Virus record (IMG/VR): IMGVR_UViG_3300031999_000160
Location: 1 to 28,031 of that record
From: a virus
DNA length: 28,031 nt
Strand: one strand, 5' to 3'
How positions within the stretch are numbered: the stretch's first letter is position 1; each line of letters begins with the position of its first letter. Positions 5,774-26,949 of this stretch are shown here, in pieces. Both the position numbers and the translations under genes were made by a program. The notes below the pieces were generated by a model. It was given only the letters and a program-made list of their open reading frames with translations. It was not told the origin of the DNA and made no database searches.

Positions 5774-6316
5774 TTATTGCCTCACCGTACTTGTCTGTTC
5801 GCCTCTGAAGGCTTTTTCTAACACGAAATCCGCCCGCGTGAGCAACGAATCCTCCCAAAGGTCAACGGATAAGATGCCGCGGCTGGCCAGCAGTAGTTTG
5901 GCGATGCCCATACGGGCCCGGTCATCGGTATTGACCCAATGCCAGCGAAGACCGTTGATGTTCCACACCATCTTCATACCGGGGAAGTAAAAATCGGAGA
6001 TGAAGCCCCCAAATGCGGTGCGTCCGCCCATGACAGCCCACTGCATAACGAAGTCCACGTTCTCTATCTGGTGCTTCTTGCCCACAAGCCAGTCCCAGGC
6101 GATGAACTCCAGCAGGGAGCCGCCGTGTGTGGCCAACCATGCGTTGGCACGATCTTCTAGAGCCGTGTCCTGGTCTGCGGGTAGGGGGATAGAAGGCCCC
6201 TTCAGTGGACGTAGGGTAAGGCCCTTCTCCGTGAAAGTACGACGTAGGCGCCCCGCTTGTGGAATACCTGGGGCGCGAAATGGAGTCGGTCTTGTGAGGT
6301 CAATTCGTCTTGCCAT
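5774..6316 (-). CDS. Vsr/DUF559-like PD-(D/E)XK nuclease-fold protein, probably degenerate (180 aa)
   Basis: The start is ATG 6316-6314, overlapping the previous stop (TAATG); the stop is TAA one base before the fibre start. Residues about 68-152 follow the order of Vsr-like/DUF559 endonuclease-fold proteins: an early Glu helix, FVMQWAVMGGR, GGFISDFYFP (Asp108 at the catalytic Asp position), a beta strand ending in NGLRWH, then DRARMGIAKLLLASRG and VDLWED. In the family the strand before the G..WH motif normally carries the catalytic Glu; here the matching residue appears to be Asn (MVWNING). The fold is therefore moderately supported, but activity is doubtful. It lies between the nozzle and fibre genes, so it may be a repurposed structural or tail-attachment protein. 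The family match is by eye. Confidence 0.6.
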   Translation of the reverse strand: MARRIDLTRPTPFRAPGIPQAGRLRRTFTEKGLTLRPLKGPSIPLPADQDTALEDRANAWLATHGGSLLEFIAWDWLVGKKHQIENVDFVMQWAVMGGRTAFGGFISDFYFPGMKMVWNINGLRWHWVNTDDRARMGIAKLLLASRGILSVDLWEDSLLTRADFVLEKAFRGEQTSTVRQ

Positions 6317-8250
6317 TACGCGCCTATGGGTTCTATCAAGGTCAACTCGAATAGTCCATTGCCTTTTACTGCGTCTCGGAAGTCATCGAAGGTTCCTGGT
6401 AGATCAGCGATCTTCACGTATGTACCTGTGGTCACATTGGGAATCACGAGTAGAACCAGGGGTTTCGTGTTCCAGATGGTGATCAGTTTCTCCCAGACGT
6501 TCTTCAGTGTGGCGGGCACCCCACCCACAAGAGTACCCTCAGCTTTCATCTGGTTGACATCCACGCGGAAAACCCAGGTCGAGCGGAACTGGGGCTTCTT
6601 GTCATAGAGGAGTACCAAAGACATCAGTTCAGGACTGAGGTTTGCCGTGCCGCCACGGTCGAGGGTGATGCGGAAGCGGACGGTGCGAAACTGGAGGCCC
6701 GTGCCGCCGCCGGGGAAATCAATGGACGTTCCGGCCGCGACGAAGGTTCCAAGGGTAGTCCACGCCCCTGCCTCATTGTTGTCGAGCTGGTACTCTACCT
6801 TTACCGTCTCGTTGGCTGTTAGACTGTACCCATCGCAGTAGAGTCGGTAGAGGACGCCGGACAACTCACGGAAGCCACCATCGATCCAGCCGGTGTCAAA
6901 GTACAGGGGGCCGTCTTGGAAATTGTCCACCCCCACCACCGGCACCTCGCCTGTGTTGGGAAGACGGAGCGTCATCAGTCGGGGAGTCGTTGCGGCCCCA
7001 TAGCCAGCGGCACCCAGAACCACGATCCGCCGTTCTGTGTCAACCGTAGCGGGCAACCACTTCGAGGCGATGCCAGACACGACCGAGCAGAAGGAAGCGA
7101 CGGCCGGGCCAAACTGGGACCAACCCACGCCGTTGTAAACGATAACCTGTGTTGCTCCCGCCCCCGTATGGAGGAGGGCGAAGAGGTAGTCCGTACCCCC
7201 AATGAGTTTGACGATGGCGCCGCTCTGGAGTCCCGGCGGGACACCTCCTCCCTTGCGCGGCCAGGAGATGTTCCGTACAGTCGATCCATCCCAAAGGAAG
7301 ACGTTGTAGCCGTCCGTAAGTACGATGTAGTTGTTCCAGATTAGGGCATCGTGCAGGTGGCGCTTGTTGTTGATGGGGATCAGGAGGGCGTTCCTATTGC
7401 TAAAGTCAAGGGCGAAAAGTGATTGCAGTCCGGCATCATCGCGTGCTAAGAAATGAACCGCACCCTCACCCCACGGGGCCATGTAGATTCCAATAAACTG
7501 GACACGGCCATATCCACACTTCCAGACAATATCTGGAATAGCTAGATCACAACTCCACGTCAGGCCGTTGGCAGAGAAGATGATCTCGGCGATAGGCCGC
7601 GTGCCAATGATCTTGTCCTGCCAGACAATCGCATCCTCGATAACCTTCTGGGTGCCGGTTCCACCGTCGGCCCAGGTCGTACCGTCGGTAGAACGCTGAT
7701 ACCGCGCTGTACCGGCGCCACCCTCACAGAAAGCGTAGAGTGCATTGACCCCCGCCGCTGGTTTGGGGCAGTACTCCAGGATCCGGGACACCATGTAGGC
7801 ATTGCTGATGACCTTAACACTGGCCCAACTAGCGCCGCCATCAGTTGACTTGTAGATATTGCCACCGAAACCGGCGTAGTTGGCAGGGGCACCGCTAACA
7901 TCGGATCCTGTGATGGGGACGGAGGGTTGGCGCTTTGTGTAGTCGGCTGCCCCAGGCGCCGTTAGAGCGCCGACGGTCTGGAGGGGTGGCAGCGTGATGT
8001 GTCCGGCACGGCGGATGTCTACGCCGCCAATATTGTCCCAGGCAGTACCCAGGGCCTCACGGATGTCGAGGCGCCGGTAGCCGATACCGCCCGAAAAGTC
8101 GTCCAAACACAACCAGAACGCATGGAGACGTTCATCATACGAAGCTTTCCCCACCTTCAGGCCAACGGTCCACTCAGCGACCGAGTTACAACGAATTGGC
8201 CCGGAGACGTAGAGTGACTGCCCGGCTAATGTAATCGCCTCATGTGGCAT
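6316..8250 (-). CDS. Tail nozzle-like protein with beta-propeller features (644 aa)
   Basis: The start is ATG 8250-8248; the gene overlaps the 3' end of the homing endonuclease gene by 11 bases. Near residues 135-142 there is an Asp-box (STDGGASW), with a second imperfect one at 187-193 (STDGTTW), as in BNR/sialidase-type propeller blades. Many further repeats of short strands follow. The C-terminal 90 residues form a separate domain (STWVFRVDVNQM, VLLVIPNVTTGTYVKIADL). Podovirus nozzle proteins (T7 gp12, P22 gp10 type) are propeller-based, about 470-800 residues, and encoded beside the adaptor. Size, fold hints and the two adaptor-like genes upstream all fit that role. A general tail hub is the alternative. 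Confidence 0.65.
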   Translation of the reverse strand: MPHEAITLAGQSLYVSGPIRCNSVAEWTVGLKVGKASYDERLHAFWLCLDDFSGGIGYRRLDIREALGTAWDNIGGVDIRRAGHITLPPLQTVGALTAPGAADYTKRQPSVPITGSDVSGAPANYAGFGGNIYKSTDGGASWASVKVISNAYMVSRILEYCPKPAAGVNALYAFCEGGAGTARYQRSTDGTTWADGGTGTQKVIEDAIVWQDKIIGTRPIAEIIFSANGLTWSCDLAIPDIVWKCGYGRVQFIGIYMAPWGEGAVHFLARDDAGLQSLFALDFSNRNALLIPINNKRHLHDALIWNNYIVLTDGYNVFLWDGSTVRNISWPRKGGGVPPGLQSGAIVKLIGGTDYLFALLHTGAGATQVIVYNGVGWSQFGPAVASFCSVVSGIASKWLPATVDTERRIVVLGAAGYGAATTPRLMTLRLPNTGEVPVVGVDNFQDGPLYFDTGWIDGGFRELSGVLYRLYCDGYSLTANETVKVEYQLDNNEAGAWTTLGTFVAAGTSIDFPGGGTGLQFRTVRFRITLDRGGTANLSPELMSLVLLYDKKPQFRSTWVFRVDVNQMKAEGTLVGGVPATLKNVWEKLITIWNTKPLVLLVIPNVTTGTYVKIADLPGTFDDFRDAVKGNGLFELTLIEPIGA

Positions 8251-8707
8251 ACGGCACCACTGCCTTCCGGTGCATGGCGCCCTTAAGTGAGGTATACGGC
8301 GCCATTCGTGCCCACAGTTCTTTCATCTTGAGCCAGTGAGTTGTTTTGTCCGCATAACGTCCACGCGGGCCGTTGCCAATTACGTCACGGTATTCCAGTA
8401 TAAGAACAGCCTTATGGCGCTTGATACGAAGGTATGGAAGTAATTGGTCGAGGACTAGGACAGCAACTTTTCCACTGACGGTCCATCCGTGCATCCCCAC
8501 ATCATTCCCTGTTCGGCCCAACCCACGATAGCCACCAAAAAGGGCGTGGGCCAATGCAACAGCCGCATCCTCTTTCTGCTTAATGCCGAGGGCCACGCGA
8601 AAACATTCACGCCAGCCTTTGTTAGCCCGACTTTCGCGGCAGACAGAAATCCAACCATCCGAATCAATGACCCCGGCCAAGTAAGCCAATTCTTCTGGTG
8701 TTGCCAC
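8240..8707 (-). CDS. Free-standing LAGLIDADG homing endonuclease (155 aa)
   Basis: The N-terminus carries a clear LAGLIDADG motif at residues 7-18 (LAYLAGVIDSDG), followed by the usual WISV strand. Only one motif is present, and 155 residues is normal for the single-motif class, which acts as a homodimer cutting a long DNA site. The start is GTG 8707-8705 with AGGAG five bases upstream; the site overlaps the stop of the adaptor-like gene (TAGGAG). The 3' end overlaps the nozzle gene by 11 bases. It does not look like an intein or intron ORF, since both neighbouring genes appear complete. It is probably a mobile gene inserted between adaptor and nozzle. Composition looks slightly less GC-rich than the neighbours by eye, which would fit transfer. 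Confidence 0.88.
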   Translation of the reverse strand: MATPEELAYLAGVIDSDGWISVCRESRANKGWRECFRVALGIKQKEDAAVALAHALFGGYRGLGRTGNDVGMHGWTVSGKVAVLVLDQLLPYLRIKRHKAVLILEYRDVIGNGPRGRYADKTTHWLKMKELWARMAPYTSLKGAMHRKAVVPYAT

Positions 8708-14138: not shown

Positions 14139-15338
14139 CTACGCCGTGACGCTGAAGTTGTGGAGCCTAGCCATCGACCGAACACCCGACACGATGATCG
14201 AGGTGTCGCTGTAGTATGCCTTCTGCGAGCGAGGGCCGACGGTGGAAGGCGGCAGTTCCTCCAGGTGAGGGCGTCCACGCTGCCCGTGGTGGCCGACCTT
14301 GATCTGGTCGCGGTTGATGAGGTATAGGTCGTCCTTGGCCAACGCCGTGTGGAGCATGATCTCCACCACGCCGAAGTCGGTGTTGATGCGGTCAATGACC
14401 ACACCACCGGCACCCGTACCGGGGCCCAACCTCTCGGCCGAAGACCAGAACGAACTGATCTTCCTCTTCGCCCAGGCGCCGCAGAGAAGGGTCTTCGCCA
14501 TCTTGTCAGCGCCGACAGCGTAGAAGAGGGCCTGGAGCTTGTCGTCGATGTCCTTGCGGGTCAGAGCAACGGTAGCCAGGTCAGTGACCTGTGCTCCGTT
14601 GGCCGAAGTGACGAAGTAGATCACCCCACCGCTGGCCGCCGGTACGTTGGCCGTACCAGCGAACCGCTGGCCCATGAGGACGGTCTGCTCCAGGGCCACG
14701 AACTGCTCGGCAACCAAGTCCAGCGCCCGGTAGTCCAGGTCGGACCCGCGCATATTGAGAAGCGCGGTCTCCTGGCGCCGGAAGCTGGCCTGGATGCCCT
14801 GCTGCTGGACCTGGGGATAGTTGTACGGGAAACTGAAGATGGCGGTCGGACGGAACACGTAGTTGTCGTTCTCGTCCATCGAGTGGCCCGCCACGATGAT
14901 CTCGGACGTGTTAGCCACGGCACCTGCGCCGCCGCTGGCGGTCGTGTAGATGTCGCGCCTGACGACCACGTTATCCGCGTCGGTATGGGTCTCGATGCGG
15001 CAATACTCCACGTCGCTCGGAATGTAGAGGATGGTGCCGATGGGGTAGCGGTGGGCCGCGCCGGTCACGGTCAGGGTGGTGGTGCCACCAGCAGCAAGAC
15101 CGCCATGCGACAGACGCCGGTTCCACACGTCATCTTCCTGCCACTCGACCTTGGTGGTGCGGAAGTCGAAGGACTCCGGCCCGCCCACGTACTTGAGCAG
15201 GTCGGTGCTGCGCTCGCTCATGTTGACCAATAGTGGGGCTACGAACCTGACCTTGCTCGTAAGTGTAGTGTCAAACTCCGCCGGGAATCCGGCGTCGGGC
15301 ATACCAGCGATACGTTCTGTGAGAATTGTTCCTGGCAT
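14139..15338 (-). CDS. Major capsid protein, HK97-fold (SU10/DUF5309-like)
   Basis: At 399 residues, preceded by a scaffold-like gene, this is the head shell protein. Features matching DUF5309-type capsid proteins: an N-terminal arm, FDFRTTKVEWQED, a beta insertion (residues about 80-150), a long spine helix region with YPQVQQQGIQASFRRQETALL split as YPQVQQQGIQAS and FRRQETALL, the RALDLVAEQFVALEQTVLMGQ helix given as LVAEQFVALEQTVLMG, then KLQALFYAVGADK and the A-domain strands VVEIMLHTAL, DLYLINRDQIKV. The start is ATG 15338-15336 with GGAGGT eight bases upstream; that site can fold into a hairpin. A GC-rich hairpin follows its stop. It should be the most abundant product of this unit. Confidence 0.88.
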   Translation of the reverse strand: MPGTILTERIAGMPDAGFPAEFDTTLTSKVRFVAPLLVNMSERSTDLLKYVGGPESFDFRTTKVEWQEDDVWNRRLSHGGLAAGGTTTLTVTGAAHRYPIGTILYIPSDVEYCRIETHTDADNVVVRRDIYTTASGGAGAVANTSEIIVAGHSMDENDNYVFRPTAIFSFPYNYPQVQQQGIQASFRRQETALLNMRGSDLDYRALDLVAEQFVALEQTVLMGQRFAGTANVPAASGGVIYFVTSANGAQVTDLATVALTRKDIDDKLQALFYAVGADKMAKTLLCGAWAKRKISSFWSSAERLGPGTGAGGVVIDRINTDFGVVEIMLHTALAKDDLYLINRDQIKVGHHGQRGRPHLEELPPSTVGPRSQKAYYSDTSIIVSGVRSMARLHNFSVTA

Positions 15339-16374: not shown

Positions 16375-19300
16375 TTACTTGGCACCCTGCACGGCCGGAG
16401 GTGTGAAGTAGGCGCGGTCGGGGTACTGTGCCTTGAGGTCGTTGGCCGTCTGCACAGCAGTCAAGGTCTGAACCTTGTCCACGTAGCCCTGCCGGTACAG
16501 TTCCACATCCAGCCGGGGGTCGGCTGTCCGGATGGCGGTTCGCAGACTGGAAAGTGTGCGGCCCTTCCCCAACTTAGCCTCAAGACGCTGGTTCAGCATT
16601 TCATCCACCACGGCCCACACGTCGGCGCCGCCTGCACGATGCCCCCCCTCCAAGAGAACCTGTTGTGCGGCCTGCTGGAGAGCGGACAGATCGACGCCAA
16701 GGGCCGTCGCTACGGTTGTCCGCGTTTGTAGATAACCGGAAGGCTTGATAATCTCATCAGAGGTCTTCTGGAAATCGCGGTGCAGTTCACTCTCATGCCG
16801 GGACAGATACCAGTCCACGTCGGTACGGTCTGTCTCTGATAGTCCAACGAGGGTTGCCTCACGGTCGGCGTAGAACCCCTCCCAGTCAGTCTCCTGGGTT
16901 GCTGGGTCAGTATAGGCATTCAGGTCAACGGCGAAGTAGGCATTCAGGGTGCCGTCCACCGTGAGCGCACCAACTGGTTTCTCGCCCACCACGGCCTCCG
17001 AACGTCCTTCCGCCGTGGCAACCCAGTTGTGTGCCTCTGGTTGCTTAACACCCCTATCCACCAGGAGACGTTCAACTACTTCGTGAGTAAGAAACGCGTT
17101 GGAATCGATGCCCCGTTCGGGATGCGCCAGATACTCCTCGGCACCGCGATAGATGTTCTCAAGAATCTTTGCGGATAGACCCCCACCCGTTGTCGCCTCC
17201 TTGAAAAACGTGTCTAGGTTATTTTGGGTAGGGGAAGGAAGTAATTTCGATTCCTTGAATGTCAGCCCCAGAGCATCCTGGAGGCCAGTGAGTTCCCCGA
17301 ACTCTTGACGCTGGAGGTCGGAGTACCGGGAGCGGTAGTCGTCGCCTGCCAGTTTTCCGGCACGAGCGGAGGTATCCAAACCTTCCTTCTGGGTTCCGTA
17401 GTTCGCCCGCACGTCTTCCGACTGCTTGATGTACTTGTCCCAAGAGGACTCCGGACGGTATTGCTGCATGGGGCGGACATAGCCTTCCACCACCGCAACT
17501 ACTTCCGGACTGTCATCGACCCGCTGGCGGGCAACGCGGTTATTCTTCATCGCAGCACTTAGATGCCCCGGTGAATCCCAATAGTCCGTCCCGTACATCT
17601 GATTAGACACACGGTTCTGGATGGCCAGTAGAGCTTCGCCGCCCGTCTCCGGAGAGGTGCGGAGGCCAAAGAACTCGGCTATCGCCCGCGGCGCCCGCCG
17701 CGACCAATCCCCTTGTCCCGCAAGATAGGCGTTGACCGTAATGGGGGTGTAGTTGTCGGTAAAGTAGTTGAGGAGTTTGCGGGGGTCGTCCACAAAAGCA
17801 GCAATGTCTACTTCTTGGCCGATGTAGTCCGCACCGTTTATGAAGTCAGCAAACTTGGTGGACATGGGGGCGCCCTTAGACCGCAAACCACGGGTAATGG
17901 GGTTATTCCAGATTCCATTCGGGAGATGGGCCCCTCCCGGAGTGGTGGCCTCCCAGTTGTCGTAGTTCCAGTTGTCTTTGTCAGCCATGCCCGCCAATAT
18001 AGCGAACCCGGAACGGTAGGTGCCCCCCATTCCGTACCAACCTCCCCCGATGTTCATGGCCATGAACTTCTTGCCGGACATAGGATTGAGGGCCACGGCG
18101 ATCTCGTCTAGGATCGCCTTTTGGCTTCTACCTTGTATCGTCCCTCTGGCCATGATAAGTCCGGAAGTTATGGCCGCCCCGCCCGTGAGCATCTTCGCCA
18201 TGATGAGGCGGGCCGCCGCCGGGGTGTAACCAGAACCAGCGACGTAAGACAATGTGCCAAGGAAGGAGCGCGTGTACCGTGTGGCGAACCAAACCCAAGC
18301 AGATTCGATCTGCATCTGACGGGGACTGAGGACGCCGCTCAGTTGTGGCTGGCCTATGAGGGTGTCGGCAAACCTGGCTATGCGAAACTTCTCATATTCG
18401 AGAGCCTCGCCCGTCAACCCTTTCGGAGCCCCGGCCATCCGAAGCAGTCTGCCGGGGGCTTTGGCAGCATCAACCATAGCGTCATAGGCCATGACCCTGC
18501 CAAAGAGCAGGGAGGACTCAAACCCCCGCGTAAGACTCTGTATTCCCCCGCGACCTACCCGCAATGGGGCCGTGACCGCACCTAGAACCTTTCCGGCTGG
18601 GCCGGGGCCTTCTCCCAACAGCCTGGTAGCCTCAAAGAACTCAGATTCGATCTGCACATTGCCACCATGCGCGGCAAAGTCGCGGGCAGCCGGGCTTTGT
18701 ATAAACTCATAGATTGTCCGTGGCTTCGCCATAGCCTGGAAGCCTTCGGCCATTGACTGCGCCCAGAGTTTGGCGCCTACAGCGGGGTTGTCTGCCACAA
18801 AAGGCAGTGTTTGGAGTTGGATGGCACCCCAACCCGTATCGGCCGAACCCGTGAGTACCATCCGCATGACGGCGTTGATCTTCTGCGGGATGGTAATGGC
18901 TGGACTACGGGATCGCGCACCGGGTCCAAGGAAAGTCTCCACCTGCCGGAGCTGTTCCTTCGGCATAACGCCACGGAATCCAAACCCCAGACCCCCGATA
19001 GGGGCCTCCTTCAGTGTCGGGGCTCCGATCCGTATTACGCCTTTCTCTTTCCAGAAGTTGTTGACCAGGGCATTTCGCGTGATGCGCTGCATCCCTTGGA
19101 TGTAGAGATCCGCCTGGAATATCAGGCCGGGGCGGTACTTCACACCCAATTCTTCAATCGCCTGTTGCTGCACTTCGATGATGCGCCGGTTCAGGGCGGC
19201 GGGTTTACCACCACCGACCCCAGACTCCAGACCCACCCGCTTTGATGTAGGGTCAACCGCAAAACGCGGCCAGTGTACGTCCCGTGTAGCGATCTTTATG

Positions 19301-21222
19301 CCTAGAGCTGCTTCGGCCTCAGCAGTGGGGCCAGCGGTCGTGGCGTAAATCTTCCTTACCCACCCCACCTGTTCCGGAGTAAAGCGAGAGATGTAGGTAC
19401 TTTCCCCCCGCAGTATGCTTTCGATGACATCTCCGCCCGCGATCCACACACCCGTGCGCCCACCGACTGCCGCAGGCACCCATATCTGGCCAACGGCGTT
19501 CTCAAGAAACGGGACACGGGCTCCATTGAATGGGGCCAAGGCCTCTGCCCGCGCTGCGTCCTGCCATGTCTTGTCGAGTATCCAGCGTGCCACCCCGCCC
19601 ATGTGCGGATCATCCATTATGGCCAACTGGTTGACTCGCTCAACGAGGAACTGGCCACCCGGAACCCGGTTTGCGAACGTCCTTGCAAACTTCCGCAGGA
19701 GATCGTTGGCTTCGGGGCGCTCAAGGATCGCATAGGCCATCCGCTCCTGTAGTTCGGGGGTGAGCATGTCTGCGCCGCCCGCTATTGCGGGAATGGGTGC
19801 ACCTTCGGCGGCACCCTCCACAATAGGTTTGATGCCCGCAGGATTCGTGACACGGACGGCGCCACGGTCGGCGGCCAAGCCCACGATCTCTGAGGGCGCA
19901 ATCGCATCCGGGGCGGCCTCAACTGCAATGATCCGCGGTTCCCCGCCTATGTGTCGTGCGGTAGCATTGGCGTAAACCTGGGCATCTTCTTTGATGGGCG
20001 TCAGGAATGCCCCCACCGCCAAGGGTTGATCGCCTACCACAGTAGAGGTGCCGTGATACAAAGTCTGGGGCTTCAGGCCAAGGGCCTGATTGATCTCATC
20101 CGGGCCGGTGACAACATACCCCGCCTTCCGGAGCAATTCGGTTGCAGGAGTCCCGGCTATGGGATCCTCCGCAGCACGTTCTAGTGTTGCGCGGAGACCC
20201 GCACGAGTGAGACCAGGAGCAGAGTGGAGCAAAACAGGGAGAGCAACCCCTCCCACGACGGCACCCACCACAGGTGGGGCCCATCCCTGCACTGACGCCT
20301 CCTCCCCAGCCGCCATTCCGGTAGAAACCTCCGCCATCGTTATCGCCTTCCCGATCAACGACGTACCTGGGAAGAAGGGCAACGTGGCTAAGAAGGCAGG
20401 ATCTCCCATCAGGTCTACCGTGCTGGCAAGAATGTTGGTGAGGGCTCCCGCCGGTAGATTCTTGCGTATGGCGTCGGATAGAGGGGCCCCAAACCCGCTT
20501 ACTGGGATCGCGTTGCCAGGTTCATACGGCGGTGCCAACAGGGAAATCTGCGCCCGCTGAAGAAGATCCTGGAGGCCAGCGTCGGAGGCCAGGTAGGTTG
20601 TGTAGTCCTGCGGGTGCTCTCCGGCAATGGAGGTAACGGCATCCGAGACGGCCCGCTGCGGATTGAGGGTGCCTACCGTGTTGGCGTAGTCGGATCCCAC
20701 ACTACCCACAACAGTCCGTTGGAGATCCTTTATTCCCTCCGGACTGTACGCCCCGACCTGATCCAGCAAAGCCTCCATCTGCTTCTGGGCGAAGAACATG
20801 TTGCCGTAGGCATCGTACATATCTGTACTGGCGCCCTTGGGAAGCGTAAGTCCGCTCCGCGCCTCCGTCTCCTGGAGGGAGATGTACTGTTTGAACTCCT
20901 CCTGAGCTGTGGGCATATCCGTGGGTTGCCAAGGCACGAAGTTAAATGGCGCAGGCTCACTAGGTCTCCCCGGTGCAGTGACGTAGTACGGGGTTGGAGG
21001 CTGGGTGGGGGGTGCAGGTTCGCTGGGTCTCCCCGGCGCAGTGACATAGTATGGTGTAGGTTCCTGGACAGTAGAACCAGGAACAGGTGTAGGAGCAGGC
21101 GAGGGCGGCGGAGTAGGCGCAGGTGTAGGTGGTGGGGTCGGAACTGGTGTTCCCGCCGGAGCGGGCTGGGCCGCCGACACCGCCGCACGCGAAGCACGGA
21201 TGCGCTGTAGGATCGTGGGCAC
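16375..21222 (-). CDS. Giant internal/ejected virion protein with ADP-ribosyltransferase-like domain (1615 aa)
   Basis: The start is GTG 21222-21220, right after the previous TAG, with GGAGGTG as ribosome binding site. Residues 1-50 are TP/AP-rich. Residues 54-92 hold two copies of PTPYYVTAPGRPSEPAP. A hydrophobic segment lies at about 316-334. Residues about 387-440 carry LYHGTS (His390), AFLTP, AQVYA (Tyr417) and RIIAVEAAP, the order seen in H-Y-[E/D/Q]-type ADP-ribosyltransferases, including those in phage polyvalent proteins. A long helical body follows with further hydrophobic stretches. No lytic transglycosylase or tail-tape pattern is seen. It lies between portal and scaffold genes. 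I infer a head-internal protein ejected with the DNA that could modify host proteins; activity is unproven. Confidence 0.72.
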   Translation of the reverse strand: MPTILQRIRASRAAVSAAQPAPAGTPVPTPPPTPAPTPPPSPAPTPVPGSTVQEPTPYYVTAPGRPSEPAPPTQPPTPYYVTAPGRPSEPAPFNFVPWQPTDMPTAQEEFKQYISLQETEARSGLTLPKGASTDMYDAYGNMFFAQKQMEALLDQVGAYSPEGIKDLQRTVVGSVGSDYANTVGTLNPQRAVSDAVTSIAGEHPQDYTTYLASDAGLQDLLQRAQISLLAPPYEPGNAIPVSGFGAPLSDAIRKNLPAGALTNILASTVDLMGDPAFLATLPFFPGTSLIGKAITMAEVSTGMAAGEEASVQGWAPPVVGAVVGGVALPVLLHSAPGLTRAGLRATLERAAEDPIAGTPATELLRKAGYVVTGPDEINQALGLKPQTLYHGTSTVVGDQPLAVGAFLTPIKEDAQVYANATARHIGGEPRIIAVEAAPDAIAPSEIVGLAADRGAVRVTNPAGIKPIVEGAAEGAPIPAIAGGADMLTPELQERMAYAILERPEANDLLRKFARTFANRVPGGQFLVERVNQLAIMDDPHMGGVARWILDKTWQDAARAEALAPFNGARVPFLENAVGQIWVPAAVGGRTGVWIAGGDVIESILRGESTYISRFTPEQVGWVRKIYATTAGPTAEAEAALGIKIATRDVHWPRFAVDPTSKRVGLESGVGGGKPAALNRRIIEVQQQAIEELGVKYRPGLIFQADLYIQGMQRITRNALVNNFWKEKGVIRIGAPTLKEAPIGGLGFGFRGVMPKEQLRQVETFLGPGARSRSPAITIPQKINAVMRMVLTGSADTGWGAIQLQTLPFVADNPAVGAKLWAQSMAEGFQAMAKPRTIYEFIQSPAARDFAAHGGNVQIESEFFEATRLLGEGPGPAGKVLGAVTAPLRVGRGGIQSLTRGFESSLLFGRVMAYDAMVDAAKAPGRLLRMAGAPKGLTGEALEYEKFRIARFADTLIGQPQLSGVLSPRQMQIESAWVWFATRYTRSFLGTLSYVAGSGYTPAAARLIMAKMLTGGAAITSGLIMARGTIQGRSQKAILDEIAVALNPMSGKKFMAMNIGGGWYGMGGTYRSGFAILAGMADKDNWNYDNWEATTPGGAHLPNGIWNNPITRGLRSKGAPMSTKFADFINGADYIGQEVDIAAFVDDPRKLLNYFTDNYTPITVNAYLAGQGDWSRRAPRAIAEFFGLRTSPETGGEALLAIQNRVSNQMYGTDYWDSPGHLSAAMKNNRVARQRVDDSPEVVAVVEGYVRPMQQYRPESSWDKYIKQSEDVRANYGTQKEGLDTSARAGKLAGDDYRSRYSDLQRQEFGELTGLQDALGLTFKESKLLPSPTQNNLDTFFKEATTGGGLSAKILENIYRGAEEYLAHPERGIDSNAFLTHEVVERLLVDRGVKQPEAHNWVATAEGRSEAVVGEKPVGALTVDGTLNAYFAVDLNAYTDPATQETDWEGFYADREATLVGLSETDRTDVDWYLSRHESELHRDFQKTSDEIIKPSGYLQTRTTVATALGVDLSALQQAAQQVLLEGGHRAGGADVWAVVDEMLNQRLEAKLGKGRTLSSLRTAIRTADPRLDVELYRQGYVDKVQTLTAVQTANDLKAQYPDRAYFTPPAVQGAK
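20951..21060 (-). repeat. Tandem repeat in the giant protein gene
   Basis: Two copies of a 63-base unit encode PTPYYVTAPGRPSEPAP at residues 55-71 and 76-92 of the 1615-residue protein. Third-position differences show that the copies have drifted while the protein sequence was kept. Confidence 0.75.
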
Positions 21223-21642
21223 CTAGACACCTCCAGAGAGGATCTGGCGGGCCCGACCCAAAGTCGTCAATCCCGTCGGTTGGGTGGGCGGTTTAGGTTG
21301 CGGCGGAGTCGCCTTCTGAAGTCCTGTCAGGAAGGTTGCCGCCTGCTCCAACATCGCCTTACGCTTGTCTGTGGCCATCACCGAACCCGGCGTGGCGGCA
21401 GGAGTCTGCGGTTGCTTTGCCGCAGGAGGCGCAACCTGGGGTGCGGTCGGGGGAGCAGCGGGCGGAGCAGCGGGTCCGGTAGGAGAAGTTGGAGCCGTGC
21501 GCTTCAATCCTCCTTGAGGGACGCCACCCATGTCTCCACCGGGAGTAAAACCCAACCGCTCGCGGATCTTGTTGATCTGCGACCGTTTGGCCACCAAGTT
21601 GCCCAGGATACTGCCGGAACCACCTACACCCGACTGTCCCAT
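21223..21642 (-). CDS. Small proline/alanine-rich protein (139 aa)
   Basis: The start is ATG 21642-21640 with GGGAGGA upstream; the stop TAG directly abuts the GTG start of the giant protein. A short basic helical start (LVAKRSQINKIRERLG) is followed by a long disordered Pro/Ala/Thr stretch (residues about 48-85), a helix (DKRKAMLEQAATFLTGLQ) and another proline-rich tail. No family is recognised. The proline-rich composition resembles the N-terminus of the following 1615-residue protein, so the two may work together inside the head. This is inference from order and composition. Confidence 0.65.
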   Translation of the reverse strand: MGQSGVGGSGSILGNLVAKRSQINKIRERLGFTPGGDMGGVPQGGLKRTAPTSPTGPAAPPAAPPTAPQVAPPAAKQPQTPAATPGSVMATDKRKAMLEQAATFLTGLQKATPPQPKPPTQPTGLTTLGRARQILSGGV

Positions 21643-22850: not shown

Positions 22851-23155
22851 TACCAGCCCCTCCGTAAAATTGCCCCGATGAGGGCACCTGCCGCCGTAAA
22901 GATGGCAGCAACGATTCCAGAGATACCGCCAACGCGAGCAAGACTCGGTTTCGAGGGCGGGTGGTTGACGGTGTGTTCGGTAAGGCGTTCGTCCAGACCC
23001 CCACAACGTTGATCCACTCCAGTAAGGCGCTCGTGCAACAGTCCAAACTGCCCCATCATCCGAACGTCCACTTCATGGAGGGCCTTGTAGAGTTGGGCGC
23101 CACTCACGCGCTGGCCGTTGGGTTCATCTATTGTCTGCGGGATTTCATCTACCAT
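22850..23155 (-). CDS. Small coiled-coil protein with C-terminal membrane segment, XhlA-like
   Basis: I chose ATG 23155-23153, which overlaps the portal stop (TGATG) with GAGGG eight bases upstream; a GTG one codon earlier is possible. The 101-residue product has a polar start, a helical coiled-coil region (QLYKALHEVDVRMMGQFGLL, then ERLTGVDQ, LDERLTEH), a linker and one membrane segment (residues about 75-97, GIVAAIFTAAGALIGAIL), ending RRGW. This layout resembles XhlA/haemolysin-type phage proteins, which are linked to lysis. Here the gene lies in the head cluster, so it may instead help DNA entry at the host membrane. It overlaps both neighbours by a few bases, showing tight coupling. Confidence 0.75.
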   Translation of the reverse strand: MVDEIPQTIDEPNGQRVSGAQLYKALHEVDVRMMGQFGLLHERLTGVDQRCGGLDERLTEHTVNHPPSKPSLARVGGISGIVAAIFTAAGALIGAILRRGW

Positions 23156-25179
23156 CACACGGACCCTCGTTCACCAAGTTGCCCCATAAGACCGGGACCG
23201 ACACCTTCCGCCGCCTGCCCCTGGCCGGTGCCGGGGTGCTGCGTCGCCGGTGCAACGCCGGTCTCGGCGGGCATCGTCGTGTTGCCGGTCGGCATAGCCA
23301 TCGTGTTCTGTCCATACGCCTGCGTCTGACCCGTCTGCTGGCGGAACTGCATCTCCTGGAGGTAGGCCGCACGGAACTCGGTGGTGCGGATACGGGCCGC
23401 CATATCGTGTTCCTGCCTGCGCTCCAAGGCCTGGGCGACGTGCTCCAGGACGATCACTGGGTCGGTGTTGGCGATGTCCTCCCAGATGCGGTCGATCTCG
23501 GCCGCCGGGTCGTCAATCTGGAGGATGTTCTCCAGGACGGTCATCAGACTCAGGACAGGACGCCGCGGGTCGAGGGCGAACCGGGCCGCCTGGATGCGTA
23601 GGGACATATCATCCGGCAGACTCGGCTTGAAGACCGGCCGTGGCCGGTAGCGGCGCCCGCGATCCAGGTCGATGGCTGGGTCAAACTCGACGTTGAAGAA
23701 AGTCTGGCGGCGAACGATGGACGCAGACGCGGGGGCAGTCACAGTAAACTTCTTGAGTGAGGTGCCGCCGGACTGGAGTTGCGCCAGGATAGATGTTCCC
23801 GCCCGCGTACCGAAGTTCTCCATACCGTCATGGAAAGGCTCCAGGGCATTGAGGGCGGCGTTGGCTACCTGCTGGAACATGATGCCACTGCCCTGGAAGG
23901 GCACAACGGCTTGGAGGATGTTAGAGAGGACACCCTTCTGACGTTCGTTGTCAAGGATGGCCACCAACCTGTAAGCATCCGGCGTCACCGGAGACATCTC
24001 CGCCCGGCGCAGGTCTTCCTCTGGGCGGATGGCAACCTTCGCCTCAATGCCGGGTGTGAACTCCGGCAGTTCTCCGGATGGGGTCTTGAAGATCCAGGTG
24101 CCGTAGGTGCCGATGCTGAAGTGATGGAAGATAGTGGCGATGAGTTCGTTGTACTGTGGCACCTGCTCCTCGACTGCCGACAGTAGGGAGCGCCCGGACT
24201 CGGAAACCCAGGAGTTGCTGGACGACTGCCAGAAAGCCCCATACTCACCCAGACCCATCAACCGGGCCCTCTCTCGGTTCCGGTCGAGGACGAGGTTCAT
24301 TATCGAAGGTTTAGTGACAACATTGACCCCATTTACGGCCACACCGAAGATGGGGAGGGCCTGCGGAGAAAACCCGTGCCTGTAGGGTGGGATAAGCCAC
24401 TTACCATCGGCCAATGGCAGGACGTTGTTGGGGTTGTAGAGCTGGTGGGTCGGGACAGCCGATCCCAGCACCCCGGTTACGCCCTTCATCTCCCCACGGT
24501 CGTTGGACCAGTATTCAAACTTGACCGCCGGACGATTGGGGTCAAAGTTCTTGTCGTTGTACTCGTCGCCGTAGGCTTCCGGGTAGAGGCTCGCCAGGTC
24601 TCCCATCGTCGTGGGCTTCTCAATGATGCCGTAGTTCAGTCCCATCGCATCCAGGTATGGATACACGGTACGGGAGTCGTAGACCTCGGCGATCACTGGC
24701 GCCTCCCGGTACTTCAGGGCCTCTTCGGTGACGTGCAACTTGCCCCAGATCCAACCGCGGAGGAGGGCCTGCATAGCCACCTGCTTCCAGAAAGGCATGA
24801 GGCCACGCATAGAGAAGTTCTCATCCACGTCATAGATGACACCCTGGAGAGTGCGCTCAACCTTACCGATCCGCCGCCGCTCGTCCATGTTCTCGTCAGT
24901 GGCTTCATTGAGTGGGATGCGCCAGAAGGACTCATTGCGGGTCAGGATAGAGAGGGCGGCATCCAGCGCCGTCCGGGGTTCGTTGCTAATGAACCGTCTG
25001 TATCCGATTGGTTTGTACTGTTGAATAACATCAAGCAGAAAATACATTGCGCTCCAGTAATCTTGGCGTACGTGCAATGGGGACCAGAACCTTTTGCCAT
25101 ACTGAAGTTTGGTCGTAATACTCTTACGTAGGTCTTCTGCTTCCTTTTTGTTTAGGAGTGCGCCACGGGGAATAGCCAT
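23155..25179 (-). CDS. Portal protein (674 aa)
   Basis: The start is ATG 25179-25177 with GAGGTAA upstream; that site contains the terminase stop codon. It follows the large terminase gene, the usual portal position, and the length fits podovirus portals. N-terminal helices (residues 1-70) precede a region with YRRFISNEPRTALDAALSIL given as RFISNEPRTALDAALS. The central part is mixed alpha/beta (VYDSRTVYPYLDAMG, VKFEYWSNDRGEM). The stem/crown helices include YNELIATIFHHF and EHVAQALERRQEHDMAARI. The last 60 residues are Gln/Gly/Pro-rich. The protein forms the dodecameric ring at the head vertex through which DNA is pumped. The call rests on order, size and layout rather than on a single catalytic motif. 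Confidence 0.82.
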   Translation of the reverse strand: MAIPRGALLNKKEAEDLRKSITTKLQYGKRFWSPLHVRQDYWSAMYFLLDVIQQYKPIGYRRFISNEPRTALDAALSILTRNESFWRIPLNEATDENMDERRRIGKVERTLQGVIYDVDENFSMRGLMPFWKQVAMQALLRGWIWGKLHVTEEALKYREAPVIAEVYDSRTVYPYLDAMGLNYGIIEKPTTMGDLASLYPEAYGDEYNDKNFDPNRPAVKFEYWSNDRGEMKGVTGVLGSAVPTHQLYNPNNVLPLADGKWLIPPYRHGFSPQALPIFGVAVNGVNVVTKPSIMNLVLDRNRERARLMGLGEYGAFWQSSSNSWVSESGRSLLSAVEEQVPQYNELIATIFHHFSIGTYGTWIFKTPSGELPEFTPGIEAKVAIRPEEDLRRAEMSPVTPDAYRLVAILDNERQKGVLSNILQAVVPFQGSGIMFQQVANAALNALEPFHDGMENFGTRAGTSILAQLQSGGTSLKKFTVTAPASASIVRRQTFFNVEFDPAIDLDRGRRYRPRPVFKPSLPDDMSLRIQAARFALDPRRPVLSLMTVLENILQIDDPAAEIDRIWEDIANTDPVIVLEHVAQALERRQEHDMAARIRTTEFRAAYLQEMQFRQQTGQTQAYGQNTMAMPTGNTTMPAETGVAPATQHPGTGQGQAAEGVGPGLMGQLGERGSV

Positions 25180-25182
25180 CGC

Positions 25183-26949
25183 TTACCTCATCCAGAACTG
25201 GGGGCCGTTTTTATTCTGGCGGTAGGGGTTGATGATGTCCCCATTCCGGCCCACCAGGATCACGTCGTCTTCGTCTTCGCGCTTGCCGGGCTTCCTGCGG
25301 ATCTTGGCCTCCGGCGCCATGAGGAGGCACCCCGCGACAGACATAAGGATGTCGTCGTGTGCCTGAGCACCGGAGGCCTGTGCCTTCATCCGGTTCTGGG
25401 CTTTCGTCCAATCGAAGGTGCCCATCTCCTGCATCTCCAGGGCATCCCGCGTGACGTAGGTGTGGTTCACTACCGCCACCCGGAGACCCTGAAGGAGTTT
25501 CTCTCGCATCTGGGGGGTCGGGTAAATACCCGGCTTCACTTCTTTCTTGGGTTGCATCGGGTCATAGTGGTAGTAGATGTTCGGGTAGAGGAGTTCACGC
25601 ACCCGGTCTAAGCACGCCGAACCATGCCCGATGCGTTCCACACCCAGGAGGGCGTTTCCGTAGTATTCGCCGATGGCGCAAGCGATGGCCGCTGCATCGT
25701 TGGGCGTGACCTTTGCCCGGAAGCGGGCGGCCTTGTGCATAGTTGCCACATTAAGGACGTTGATGGCTGTATAGTCCGCTGAGTCCCCTTGCTCACCGCT
25801 GGCACAGTCCACATAGACTGTGTAAACCTGCGCGGGATCCGGGAACTCCCAGAGGGCTAGGCGACCGCTGTCAAAGCGCACCGGAGACTTGTTGTAGGGC
25901 AGAACCTCCATCTCCAGAACAGGAGGGGTGATGAGGTTCCTGTACCACTCCAGGTGGTCGATGCCATCCGGTGTAGCGAAGTAGTTGCCGCTGATGGACA
26001 GGAAGCAGCTCTCCAAGGACTCAGGGAACTCCTGGGCGAAGGGCGTGGTGGTCCTGGCTAGGTCTGCCATCTTCAGGCGGCGCCAGAGGATCCGGTCGGG
26101 GGTCAAGTCCGCCTTGTGCATGAGGCGCTCTTCCTCCGGTGTCGGCCGGAAGTTGGTCAGTTTCTCTTGCAGCTCGTATGCGGGAATCAAGATGTCCACC
26201 CCAGGTTCAGAGCCCACACGGTAGCGCGGCTCCATCCACCACGGATAGAGATGCACAGTCCAGAGCCCCTCTGGATCATTCGGACGGGCAGTAAGGATCT
26301 CACCGTAGAAATAACCTTCCGCCCCATTTGGTGTGCTCTCCAGGACGATTGACCCAAAGGGCGGGCCCGGCACAGAGGGCTTCAGTCCCCCCATCAGCGG
26401 GCCGACGGTCTCCGGGCGCCAGTGAGCCACCTCCGAGAAGTGGACTCGGTGAGCCGTGCGACTTCGACCAATGATGCGCTTCTCGCCAGACTGGAAGATG
26501 ACCCGGCTCTCAAGTCCTTTGATGGCCAGCTCATCGTCGTTGTCAACAGACAGGGTGTACTCCAGACCATGCGCCGCCAGGTCTTTCAGGTGGTGCTTGA
26601 TACGGTGGCGGAAGGCCTGTGTATCGGGGTCATTGTGAACGCCAGTGATGGCGGTGTAGCCCCAGGTCGTGGTGAGTTCCCTCACCGTGACCATCAACTC
26701 CAGGCTAGAGGTTCGGGACTGCCTTCCCTTCACCGTAACGTCGCGGCCTGTGTGGTCCTCCAGCATTTGTATCTGCTGGGGAAAGAGTCTGACATCTACG
26801 ATCTGCTGTTGAAGGTCTGGGACAGTCAGAAAGGTCTCACACCAGGCCTGAATGTCAGCAGGAGAGCGGCCATAGAAGAGAGGCTGGAGCGACGGGTCAA
26901 GATCCGTCCCCAACTTCTCAACCGGCGGTAGATGAACAGTCCGTGGCAT
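25183..26949 (-). CDS. terL: Terminase large subunit, ATPase-nuclease packaging motor (588 aa)
   Basis: The start is ATG 26949-26947; the ribosome binding site is weak. The N-terminal ATPase has a Q-type motif (FPQQIQML, residues 56-63), a Walker A-like loop at 74-81 (KGRQSRTS), Walker B with catalytic Glu at 169-173 (VHFSE), and the coupling motif ESTPNG at 204-209. The C-terminal nuclease is RNase H-like: Asp381 in YVDCASGEQGD, Glu438 in LLGVERIGHG, and Asp532/Asp533 in AHDDILMS. All landmarks are in the right order and spacing. The usual Lys of Walker A appears as Arg (SRT). The enzyme pumps DNA into the prohead and cuts the concatemer. The candidate small subunit, if present, is among the three small genes upstream. 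Confidence 0.95.
   Translation of the reverse strand: MPRTVHLPPVEKLGTDLDPSLQPLFYGRSPADIQAWCETFLTVPDLQQQIVDVRLFPQQIQMLEDHTGRDVTVKGRQSRTSSLELMVTVRELTTTWGYTAITGVHNDPDTQAFRHRIKHHLKDLAAHGLEYTLSVDNDDELAIKGLESRVIFQSGEKRIIGRSRTAHRVHFSEVAHWRPETVGPLMGGLKPSVPGPPFGSIVLESTPNGAEGYFYGEILTARPNDPEGLWTVHLYPWWMEPRYRVGSEPGVDILIPAYELQEKLTNFRPTPEEERLMHKADLTPDRILWRRLKMADLARTTTPFAQEFPESLESCFLSISGNYFATPDGIDHLEWYRNLITPPVLEMEVLPYNKSPVRFDSGRLALWEFPDPAQVYTVYVDCASGEQGDSADYTAINVLNVATMHKAARFRAKVTPNDAAAIACAIGEYYGNALLGVERIGHGSACLDRVRELLYPNIYYHYDPMQPKKEVKPGIYPTPQMREKLLQGLRVAVVNHTYVTRDALEMQEMGTFDWTKAQNRMKAQASGAQAHDDILMSVAGCLLMAPEAKIRRKPGKREDEDDVILVGRNGDIINPYRQNKNGPQFWMR

What the first reader, a model, noticed from the sequence alone, without database searches (positions are those of the whole stretch)
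16375..21222. 1615-residue internal virion protein with an ADP-ribosyltransferase-like domain
YHGTS, FLTP and AQVYA motifs occur in the order expected for an ART fold, inside a very long helical protein encoded between portal and scaffold. It may be delivered with phage DNA to modify host proteins at the start of infection. Its gene order differs from the T7-type arrangement, where large ejection proteins follow the tail genes.
Basis: partly seen in the sequence, partly recalled or inferred. Interest (0 to 1): 0.65.

Follow-up and report, generated by a model that had tools for sequence, protein, structure and literature searches.

The report
Swappable ART-fold cassette in phage protein
A huge phage protein encoded among the head-building genes carries a small exchangeable domain shaped like an ADP-ribosyltransferase, but the enzyme's usual active-site residues are mostly altered or missing, so it may bind rather than modify its target.

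Summary
The 1615-codon ORF is real (minus strand, 21222→16375, GTG start). It lies between the portal-like gene and the scaffold-like/SU10-type capsid genes and is under purifying selection in four related contigs. Residues ~386-468, holding YHGTS/FLTP/AQVYA, form a compact ART-fold domain. They match phrog_2110, a family of ~105-aa proteins in T4-like phages (E=1.5e-4; hhalign score 48.8 against a best of 17.9 in 150 shuffles). In the AlphaFold comparison, the rows printed for the window domain are all ART-superfamily structures (Tpt1/KptA, Arr, PARPs, LT/cholera A). The phrog_2110 family, modelled without window sequences, matches Arr first (prob 1.00, TM 0.61) and Tpt1/KptA at Z~9.

The Tyr that is catalytic in Arr is Phe, the loop thought to contact NAD is deleted, no acid is clearly conserved at the third position, and one relative has Arg for His. 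The domain occupies an exchange site: a 77%-identical relative carries an unrelated ~140-aa segment there. Packaging and ejection are inferred from gene position only. Best reading: a polyvalent-protein-like head-locus protein with a swappable, noncanonical ART-fold cassette.

The parts
16375..21222 (-). ORF of 1615 aa, the large head-locus protein
   Evidence: homologues 1496-1598 aa in L002-L004 at the same locus; dN/dS 0.05-0.36 across segments
19819..20067 (-). compact ART-fold domain, residues about 386-468
   Evidence: phrog_2110 E=1.5e-4; hhalign prob 95, E=2e-8; AlphaFold pLDDT 72.8, pTM 0.63; structure matches to ARTs
20044..20058 (-). motif I, YHGTS (residues 389-393, H390)
   Evidence: Arg at the His position in L003
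19996..20007 (-). motif II, FLTP (residues 406-409); F406 aligns with the catalytic Tyr49 of Arr
19969..19983 (-). AQVYA (residues 414-418) in the helix after motif II; Tyr417 and Ala418 invariant with the T4-like family
16966..17247 (-). lineage-specific ~94-aa insertion (residues 1326-1419), absent from L002-L004; no family match
20923..21222 (-). N-terminal Pro-rich stretch (residues 1-100) with a duplicated PTPYYVTAPGRPSEPAP unit
   Evidence: variable among relatives
23155..25179 (-). portal-like protein upstream
   Evidence: phrog_64 E=0.02; 86-95% identical in L002-L004
25183..26949 (-). large terminase
   Evidence: phrog_24361 E=4e-11 and phrog_38407; tblastn to annotated phage terminases
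15384..16286 (-). scaffold-like protein downstream (by position)
   Evidence: position before the MCP; no family match
14139..15338 (-). SU10-type major capsid protein
   Evidence: PF17236 E=2.4e-29

Best explanation
The gene encodes a large, modular protein of the head gene cluster of a tailed phage. Residues ~386-468 are a compact ART-fold domain of the Arr / Tpt1(KptA) shape, a remote relative of the standalone phrog_2110 proteins of T4-like phages. It sits at a site where relatives exchange whole domains, as effector cassettes do in phage polyvalent proteins. The active site is noncanonical: Tyr to Phe at position II, NAD loop deleted, no clearly conserved acid, His to Arg in one relative. 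The module is therefore more likely a ligand- or target-binding module, or an ART of altered chemistry, than a classical H-Y-E/D mono-ADP-ribosyltransferase. Shown: gene, locus, homology to phrog_2110, domain exchange, purifying selection, and predicted ART fold. Inferred: packaging in the virion, ejection with the DNA, action on a host component early in infection, and loss of classical activity.
For: Homology: phrog_2110 match with the domain alone, E=1.5e-4; hhalign 94-95% probability, E 8e-8 to 2e-8, score 48.8 against a best null of 17.9; the T4-family HMM ranks P0004, P0001 and P0003 above 3000 shuffles. Fold: the window-domain rows printed by VIA are all ART-superfamily entries, best Z 7.3 to Tpt1 and Arr; Foldseek viral hits include 'ART-PolyVal-like' and 'Ms Rifampin ADP-ribosyl transferase'. 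Bridging family modelled without window sequences: Arr ranks 1-3 (prob 1.00-0.96) and Z 8-9 to Tpt1/Arr. Active site: with Arr H19/Y49/D84 from PMC6092378. Exchange: L002 is 77% identical overall but has an unrelated segment at this site, and L004 has ~90 extra aa. Constraint: dN/dS 0.09-0.15 in the ART segment. Locus. Published precedent for ARTs near terminase/portal genes and in polyvalent proteins: PMC5512222, PMC9503650.
Against: The window-domain model is of moderate confidence (pLDDT 72.8) and was built with the T4-like sequences in its alignment, so its fold is not independent of them. Its Z values (7.3) lie in the range the tool warns about. The window domain has no direct sequence match to Arr or to Pfam ART-PolyVal. 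No other known domain was found in the 1615 aa, so 'polyvalent' is not demonstrated. Conservation of His in two of three members and purifying selection are also compatible with an active enzyme.
Confidence: 0.6

Rival explanations
1. Active ADP-ribosyltransferase: the domain is ejected with the DNA and ADP-ribosylates host proteins (or nucleic acid) early in infection, as T4 Alt does, using His390 and a substitute for the missing Tyr and acid.
For: ART fold, His390 kept in two of three members, purifying selection, acidic residues D439 and E445 near the expected place; ARTs are the commonest modifying enzymes in polyvalent proteins (PMC5512222). Arr homologues keep Tyr49 in only 87%, so Tyr is not absolute.
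Against: Phe at the Tyr position in all members and relatives, NAD-loop segment deleted, no aligned D84 equivalent, Arg for His in L003.
Confidence: 0.27
2. Purely structural internal virion or ejection protein: the ART-fold segment is a fossil insertion that forms part of a head core or ejection channel without any role of its own.
For: Position in the head cluster; ~1500 aa of unassigned body conserved in relatives; the segment is replaceable in L002.
Against: The ART segment is more conserved than its flanks between P0001 and P0003, with dN 0.13 against 0.31-0.38; a passive filler would not be expected to be better conserved than the flanks.
Confidence: 0.1
3. The motifs are chance and there is no ART relationship.
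For: No Pfam ART family matches the protein at all, and no PDB sequence matches.
Against: Profile-profile and shuffle tests; ART structures fill the printed list.
Confidence: 0.03

Closest known systems
phrog_2110 proteins (standalone ~105 aa, T4-like phages, beside dmd)
   Same: YHG[TS] motif, F-[FL]-T at strand 2, A..YA, R.A.S/H.GGEP.LYRV..PxD block; significant profile match
   Different: The window domain lacks an 18-aa loop (SEKGRKKNL region), is embedded in a 1615-aa protein, and has an extra C-terminal strand pair (VRV...IKPI)
Rifampin ADP-ribosyltransferase Arr (PF12120, PDB 2hw2, 9iaf)
   Same: Fold; HGT motif I aligns
   Different: Tyr49 is Phe, no equivalent of Asp84 of the DPN[V/L] motif, NAD loop absent, no direct sequence match for the window domain
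tRNA 2'-phosphotransferase Tpt1/KptA
   Same: Fold, best Z
   Different: No N-terminal Tpt1 lobe: the match covers only the C-terminal ART lobe of Tpt1 (chain residues ~88-180)
ART domains of phage polyvalent proteins (Tox-ART-HYD2 clade / ART-PolyVal PF18760)
   Same: ART domain inside a very large phage protein encoded with virion genes; exchangeable domains (PMC5512222)
   Different: No PF18760 match; the defining H-Y-D site is not kept; no second known domain found
T4 Alt
   Same: Idea of an ART carried in the head
   Different: Alt is of the R-S-E clade (PMC5512222); no such motif was noted here, and packaging was not shown

Membership tests
ART superfamily (fold) | ART core fold with motif I at the end of strand 1 | tested here: met
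   Model SS E-E-H-E-E-H-E-E; printed structure matches are ARTs; bridging family modelled independently
Catalytically competent H-Y-[E/D/Q] ARTs | His of motif I | tested here: inconclusive
   His390 present in window and L004, Arg in L003
Catalytically competent H-Y-[E/D/Q] ARTs | Tyr in strand 2 | tested here: not met
   Phe in the window domain and in the aligned relatives
Catalytically competent H-Y-[E/D/Q] ARTs | Catalytic acid (third position) | tested here: inconclusive
   No aligned acid without a gap; D439 and E445 lie nearby; no coordinates available to decide
phrog_2110 | Profile match | tested here: met
   E=1.5e-4 for the domain alone, 0.0068 for the whole protein; hhalign
Arr (PF12120) | Profile match over the curated cut-off | tested here: not met
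   No match in the window record or in Pfam scans
ART-PolyVal (PF18760) | Profile match | tested here: not met
   No match at E<=10
Phage polyvalent proteins | Two or more recognised effector domains in one polypeptide | tested here: inconclusive
   Only the ART-like domain recognised; exchangeable segments seen but unidentified
Phage polyvalent proteins | Encoded with virion genes of a portal-terminase phage | tested here: met
   Gene order
Phage polyvalent proteins | Packaged in the head and injected | not testable with these tools
   Needs virion proteomics

The most novel reading that the evidence does not exclude
A head-locus ejection protein carries a hot-spot slot for exchangeable early-infection modules, one of which is an ART-fold pseudoenzyme or ART of new chemistry. 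This module shares ancestry with a T4-like protein encoded beside dmd in the anti-toxin-antitoxin island, which suggests a counter-defence function delivered from the virion.
Probability: 0.2. Interest if true: 0.65.

Novelty: new variant of a known kind. Interest (0 to 1): 0.36.

Why it matters
ARTs packaged in phage heads are a recognised strategy for taking over the host, but those described in polyvalent proteins keep an H-Y-D site. A selectively maintained ART-fold module with an altered site, in a slot where relatives carry other domains, would point to noncatalytic or chemically altered ART modules among ejected phage proteins. It would also link an unstudied gene of T4-like phages to head-delivered proteins.

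Tried and rejected
Pfam on the whole protein, relatives and sub-segments gave no curated match. PDB sequence search gave only Pro-rich chance hits, and profile searches gave none of use. tblastn of the whole protein at E<=0.01 and of residues 481-1260 at E<=10 found nothing in 50,697 phage records, so the body has no detectable relatives there. Scanning viral contigs with the whole protein, its alignment, the ART-only alignment and the portal alignment found only the same three contigs. Genome contigs with the body found none. LPD38 and ART-PolyVal models did not match, although LPD38 rang in no control either and so says nothing. The L002 replacement segment looked ART-like by eye ('VWAT...GGTVAYRPEDVTVL') but profile comparison does not support this (prob 1.3%), so I dropped it. 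The ~94-aa insertion in P0001 and the L004 insertion have no family match. T4 TifA was considered because it lies near dmd, but it is gene 61.4 on the other side of dmd with a different predicted fold.

Full report
OBSERVATION. The reported coordinates are those of a real 1615-codon ORF, but on the minus strand, from a GTG at 21222 to a stop at 16375. It begins directly after the preceding ORF (21223-21642). YHGTS is at residue 389, FLTP at 406 and AQVYA at 414. None of 5000 shuffles of the protein contains even a loose version of the pattern. The window is a whole IMG/VR record of 28,031 bases.

SURROUNDINGS. Read on the minus strand the order is large terminase (25183-26949), portal-like protein (23155-25179; phrog_64 E=0.02 only), 394 aa, 139 aa, the 1615-aa protein, a scaffold-like protein (by position), and an SU10-type major capsid protein (E=2.4e-29). 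The whole block is conserved in three IMG/VR contigs, L002-L004 (portal 86-95% identical). Their large proteins are 67-84% identical to the window's. Codon comparison gives dN/dS 0.05-0.36 across segments, so this is a coding gene under purifying selection.

THE DOMAIN. The isolated region matches phrog_2110 at E=1.5e-4 (0.0068 for the whole protein). Members of that family found in T4-like phages are ~105-aa standalone proteins; 597 phage records hold a match to one of them, and some are annotated as rifampin or putative ADP-ribosyl transferase. Profile-profile comparison gives 94-95% probability and E 8e-8 to 2e-8. The score of 48.8 compares with a best of 17.9 among 150 column-shuffled controls, and the rest of the protein scores 14.7. 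The T4-family HMM ranks P0004, P0001 and P0003 above all 3000 shuffles.

THE FOLD. AlphaFold on residues 372-485, with a 21-sequence alignment that includes the T4-like relatives, gives pLDDT 72.8 and pTM 0.63, with strands and helices in ART order. Foldseek against the PDB ranks Tpt1/KptA, Arr and PARPs first, at E values of 0.1 and above. The structural re-alignment lists ART-superfamily structures throughout its printed rows, led by Tpt1 and Arr at Z 7.3 over 74-77 residues. Against viral models, ART-PolyVal-like and Arr-like proteins are among the leading hits. Because Z under 8 can be non-specific and the model was helped by the relatives, I modelled the T4-like family alone, with no window sequence: pLDDT 73.7, Arr at ranks 1-3 of Foldseek with probability 0.96-1.00 and TM ~0.6, and Z 8-9 to Tpt1 and Arr, with a gap to Z ~6 for the next group. 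Sequence profiles also align this family with Arr, score 26.7 against a shuffled maximum of 22.3. The chain window domain - phrog_2110 - Arr/Tpt1 is therefore reasonably firm. The window domain alone shows no direct sequence match to Arr.

THE ACTIVE SITE. Arr catalysis needs H19, Y49 and D84, and a loop between strands 2 and 3 is thought to contact NAD (PMC6092378). His390 aligns with H19 but is Arg in L003. F406 aligns with Y49, and the T4-like family also has Phe there. The ~18-residue loop segment before strand 2 is deleted in the window group. At the D84 position the ungapped alignment gives Pro; D439 and E445 are nearby, and E445's counterpart varies in the T4-like proteins (D, N, K, H or E). 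I cannot settle this without coordinates.

THE EXCHANGE SITE. In L002, 77% identical overall, this stretch is replaced by a ~142-aa segment without detectable relation. L004 has ~90 extra residues after the ART segment. The window protein has a private ~94-aa insertion at 1326-1419. Between the window and L003 the ART segment is better conserved than its flanks (dN 0.13 against 0.31-0.39 in the other segments before the C-terminal region, and dS also lower), which fits exchange plus constraint. This resembles the domain mosaicism described for polyvalent proteins (PMC5512222), but no second known domain was recognised, so membership there is inconclusive.

MECHANISM. From gene position, and from published surveys that place many phage ARTs next to terminase and portal genes (PMC9503650), I infer packaging and ejection. 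I commit to a binding or chemically altered ART-fold module as the likelier reading (0.6), over a classical transferase (0.27). The T4-like relatives lie beside dmd, in a region proposed to be an anti-toxin-antitoxin island (PMC9391042). That is only a lead toward a counter-defence role.

VERDICT. Observation confirmed; interpretation partly supported; a new variant of a known kind with moderate interest.

Noticed in passing
8240-8707 (minus strand): 155-aa ORF with YLAGVIDSDGWIS, LAGLIDADG-homing-endonuclease-like, among the structural genes; Pfam LAGLIDADG_1 only at E=0.18.
   Followed up: partly
L005:1471-1788 and L009-L036: phrog_2110 gene of T4-like phages beside dmd: predicted Arr/Tpt1-like fold, unknown function, within or next to the proposed anti-toxin-antitoxin island.
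   Followed up: partly
L037:4010-4351: A Patescibacteria MAG contig encodes a phrog_2110 homologue (E=1.9e-26, 48% identity to the T4-like query), with VFLT as in the window domain's AFLT.
   Followed up: partly
L002:9102-9527: Unidentified ~142-aa segment replacing the ART-like domain in an otherwise 77%-identical protein.
   Followed up: partly
16966-17247 (minus strand): Private ~94-aa insertion in the C-terminal part of the window protein, absent from three relatives; no family match.
   Followed up: partly
5774-6316 (minus strand): 180-aa protein with a GGRTAFGGFISDFYFPGMKMVWNINGLRWHW stretch that looks nuclease-like by eye; the only PHROG match is a homing endonuclease at E=0.58.
   Followed up: no
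20923-21222 (minus strand): Pro-rich N-terminus with a duplicated PTPYYVTAPGRPSEPAP unit; L003 and L004 have one similar copy and L002 none.
   Followed up: no
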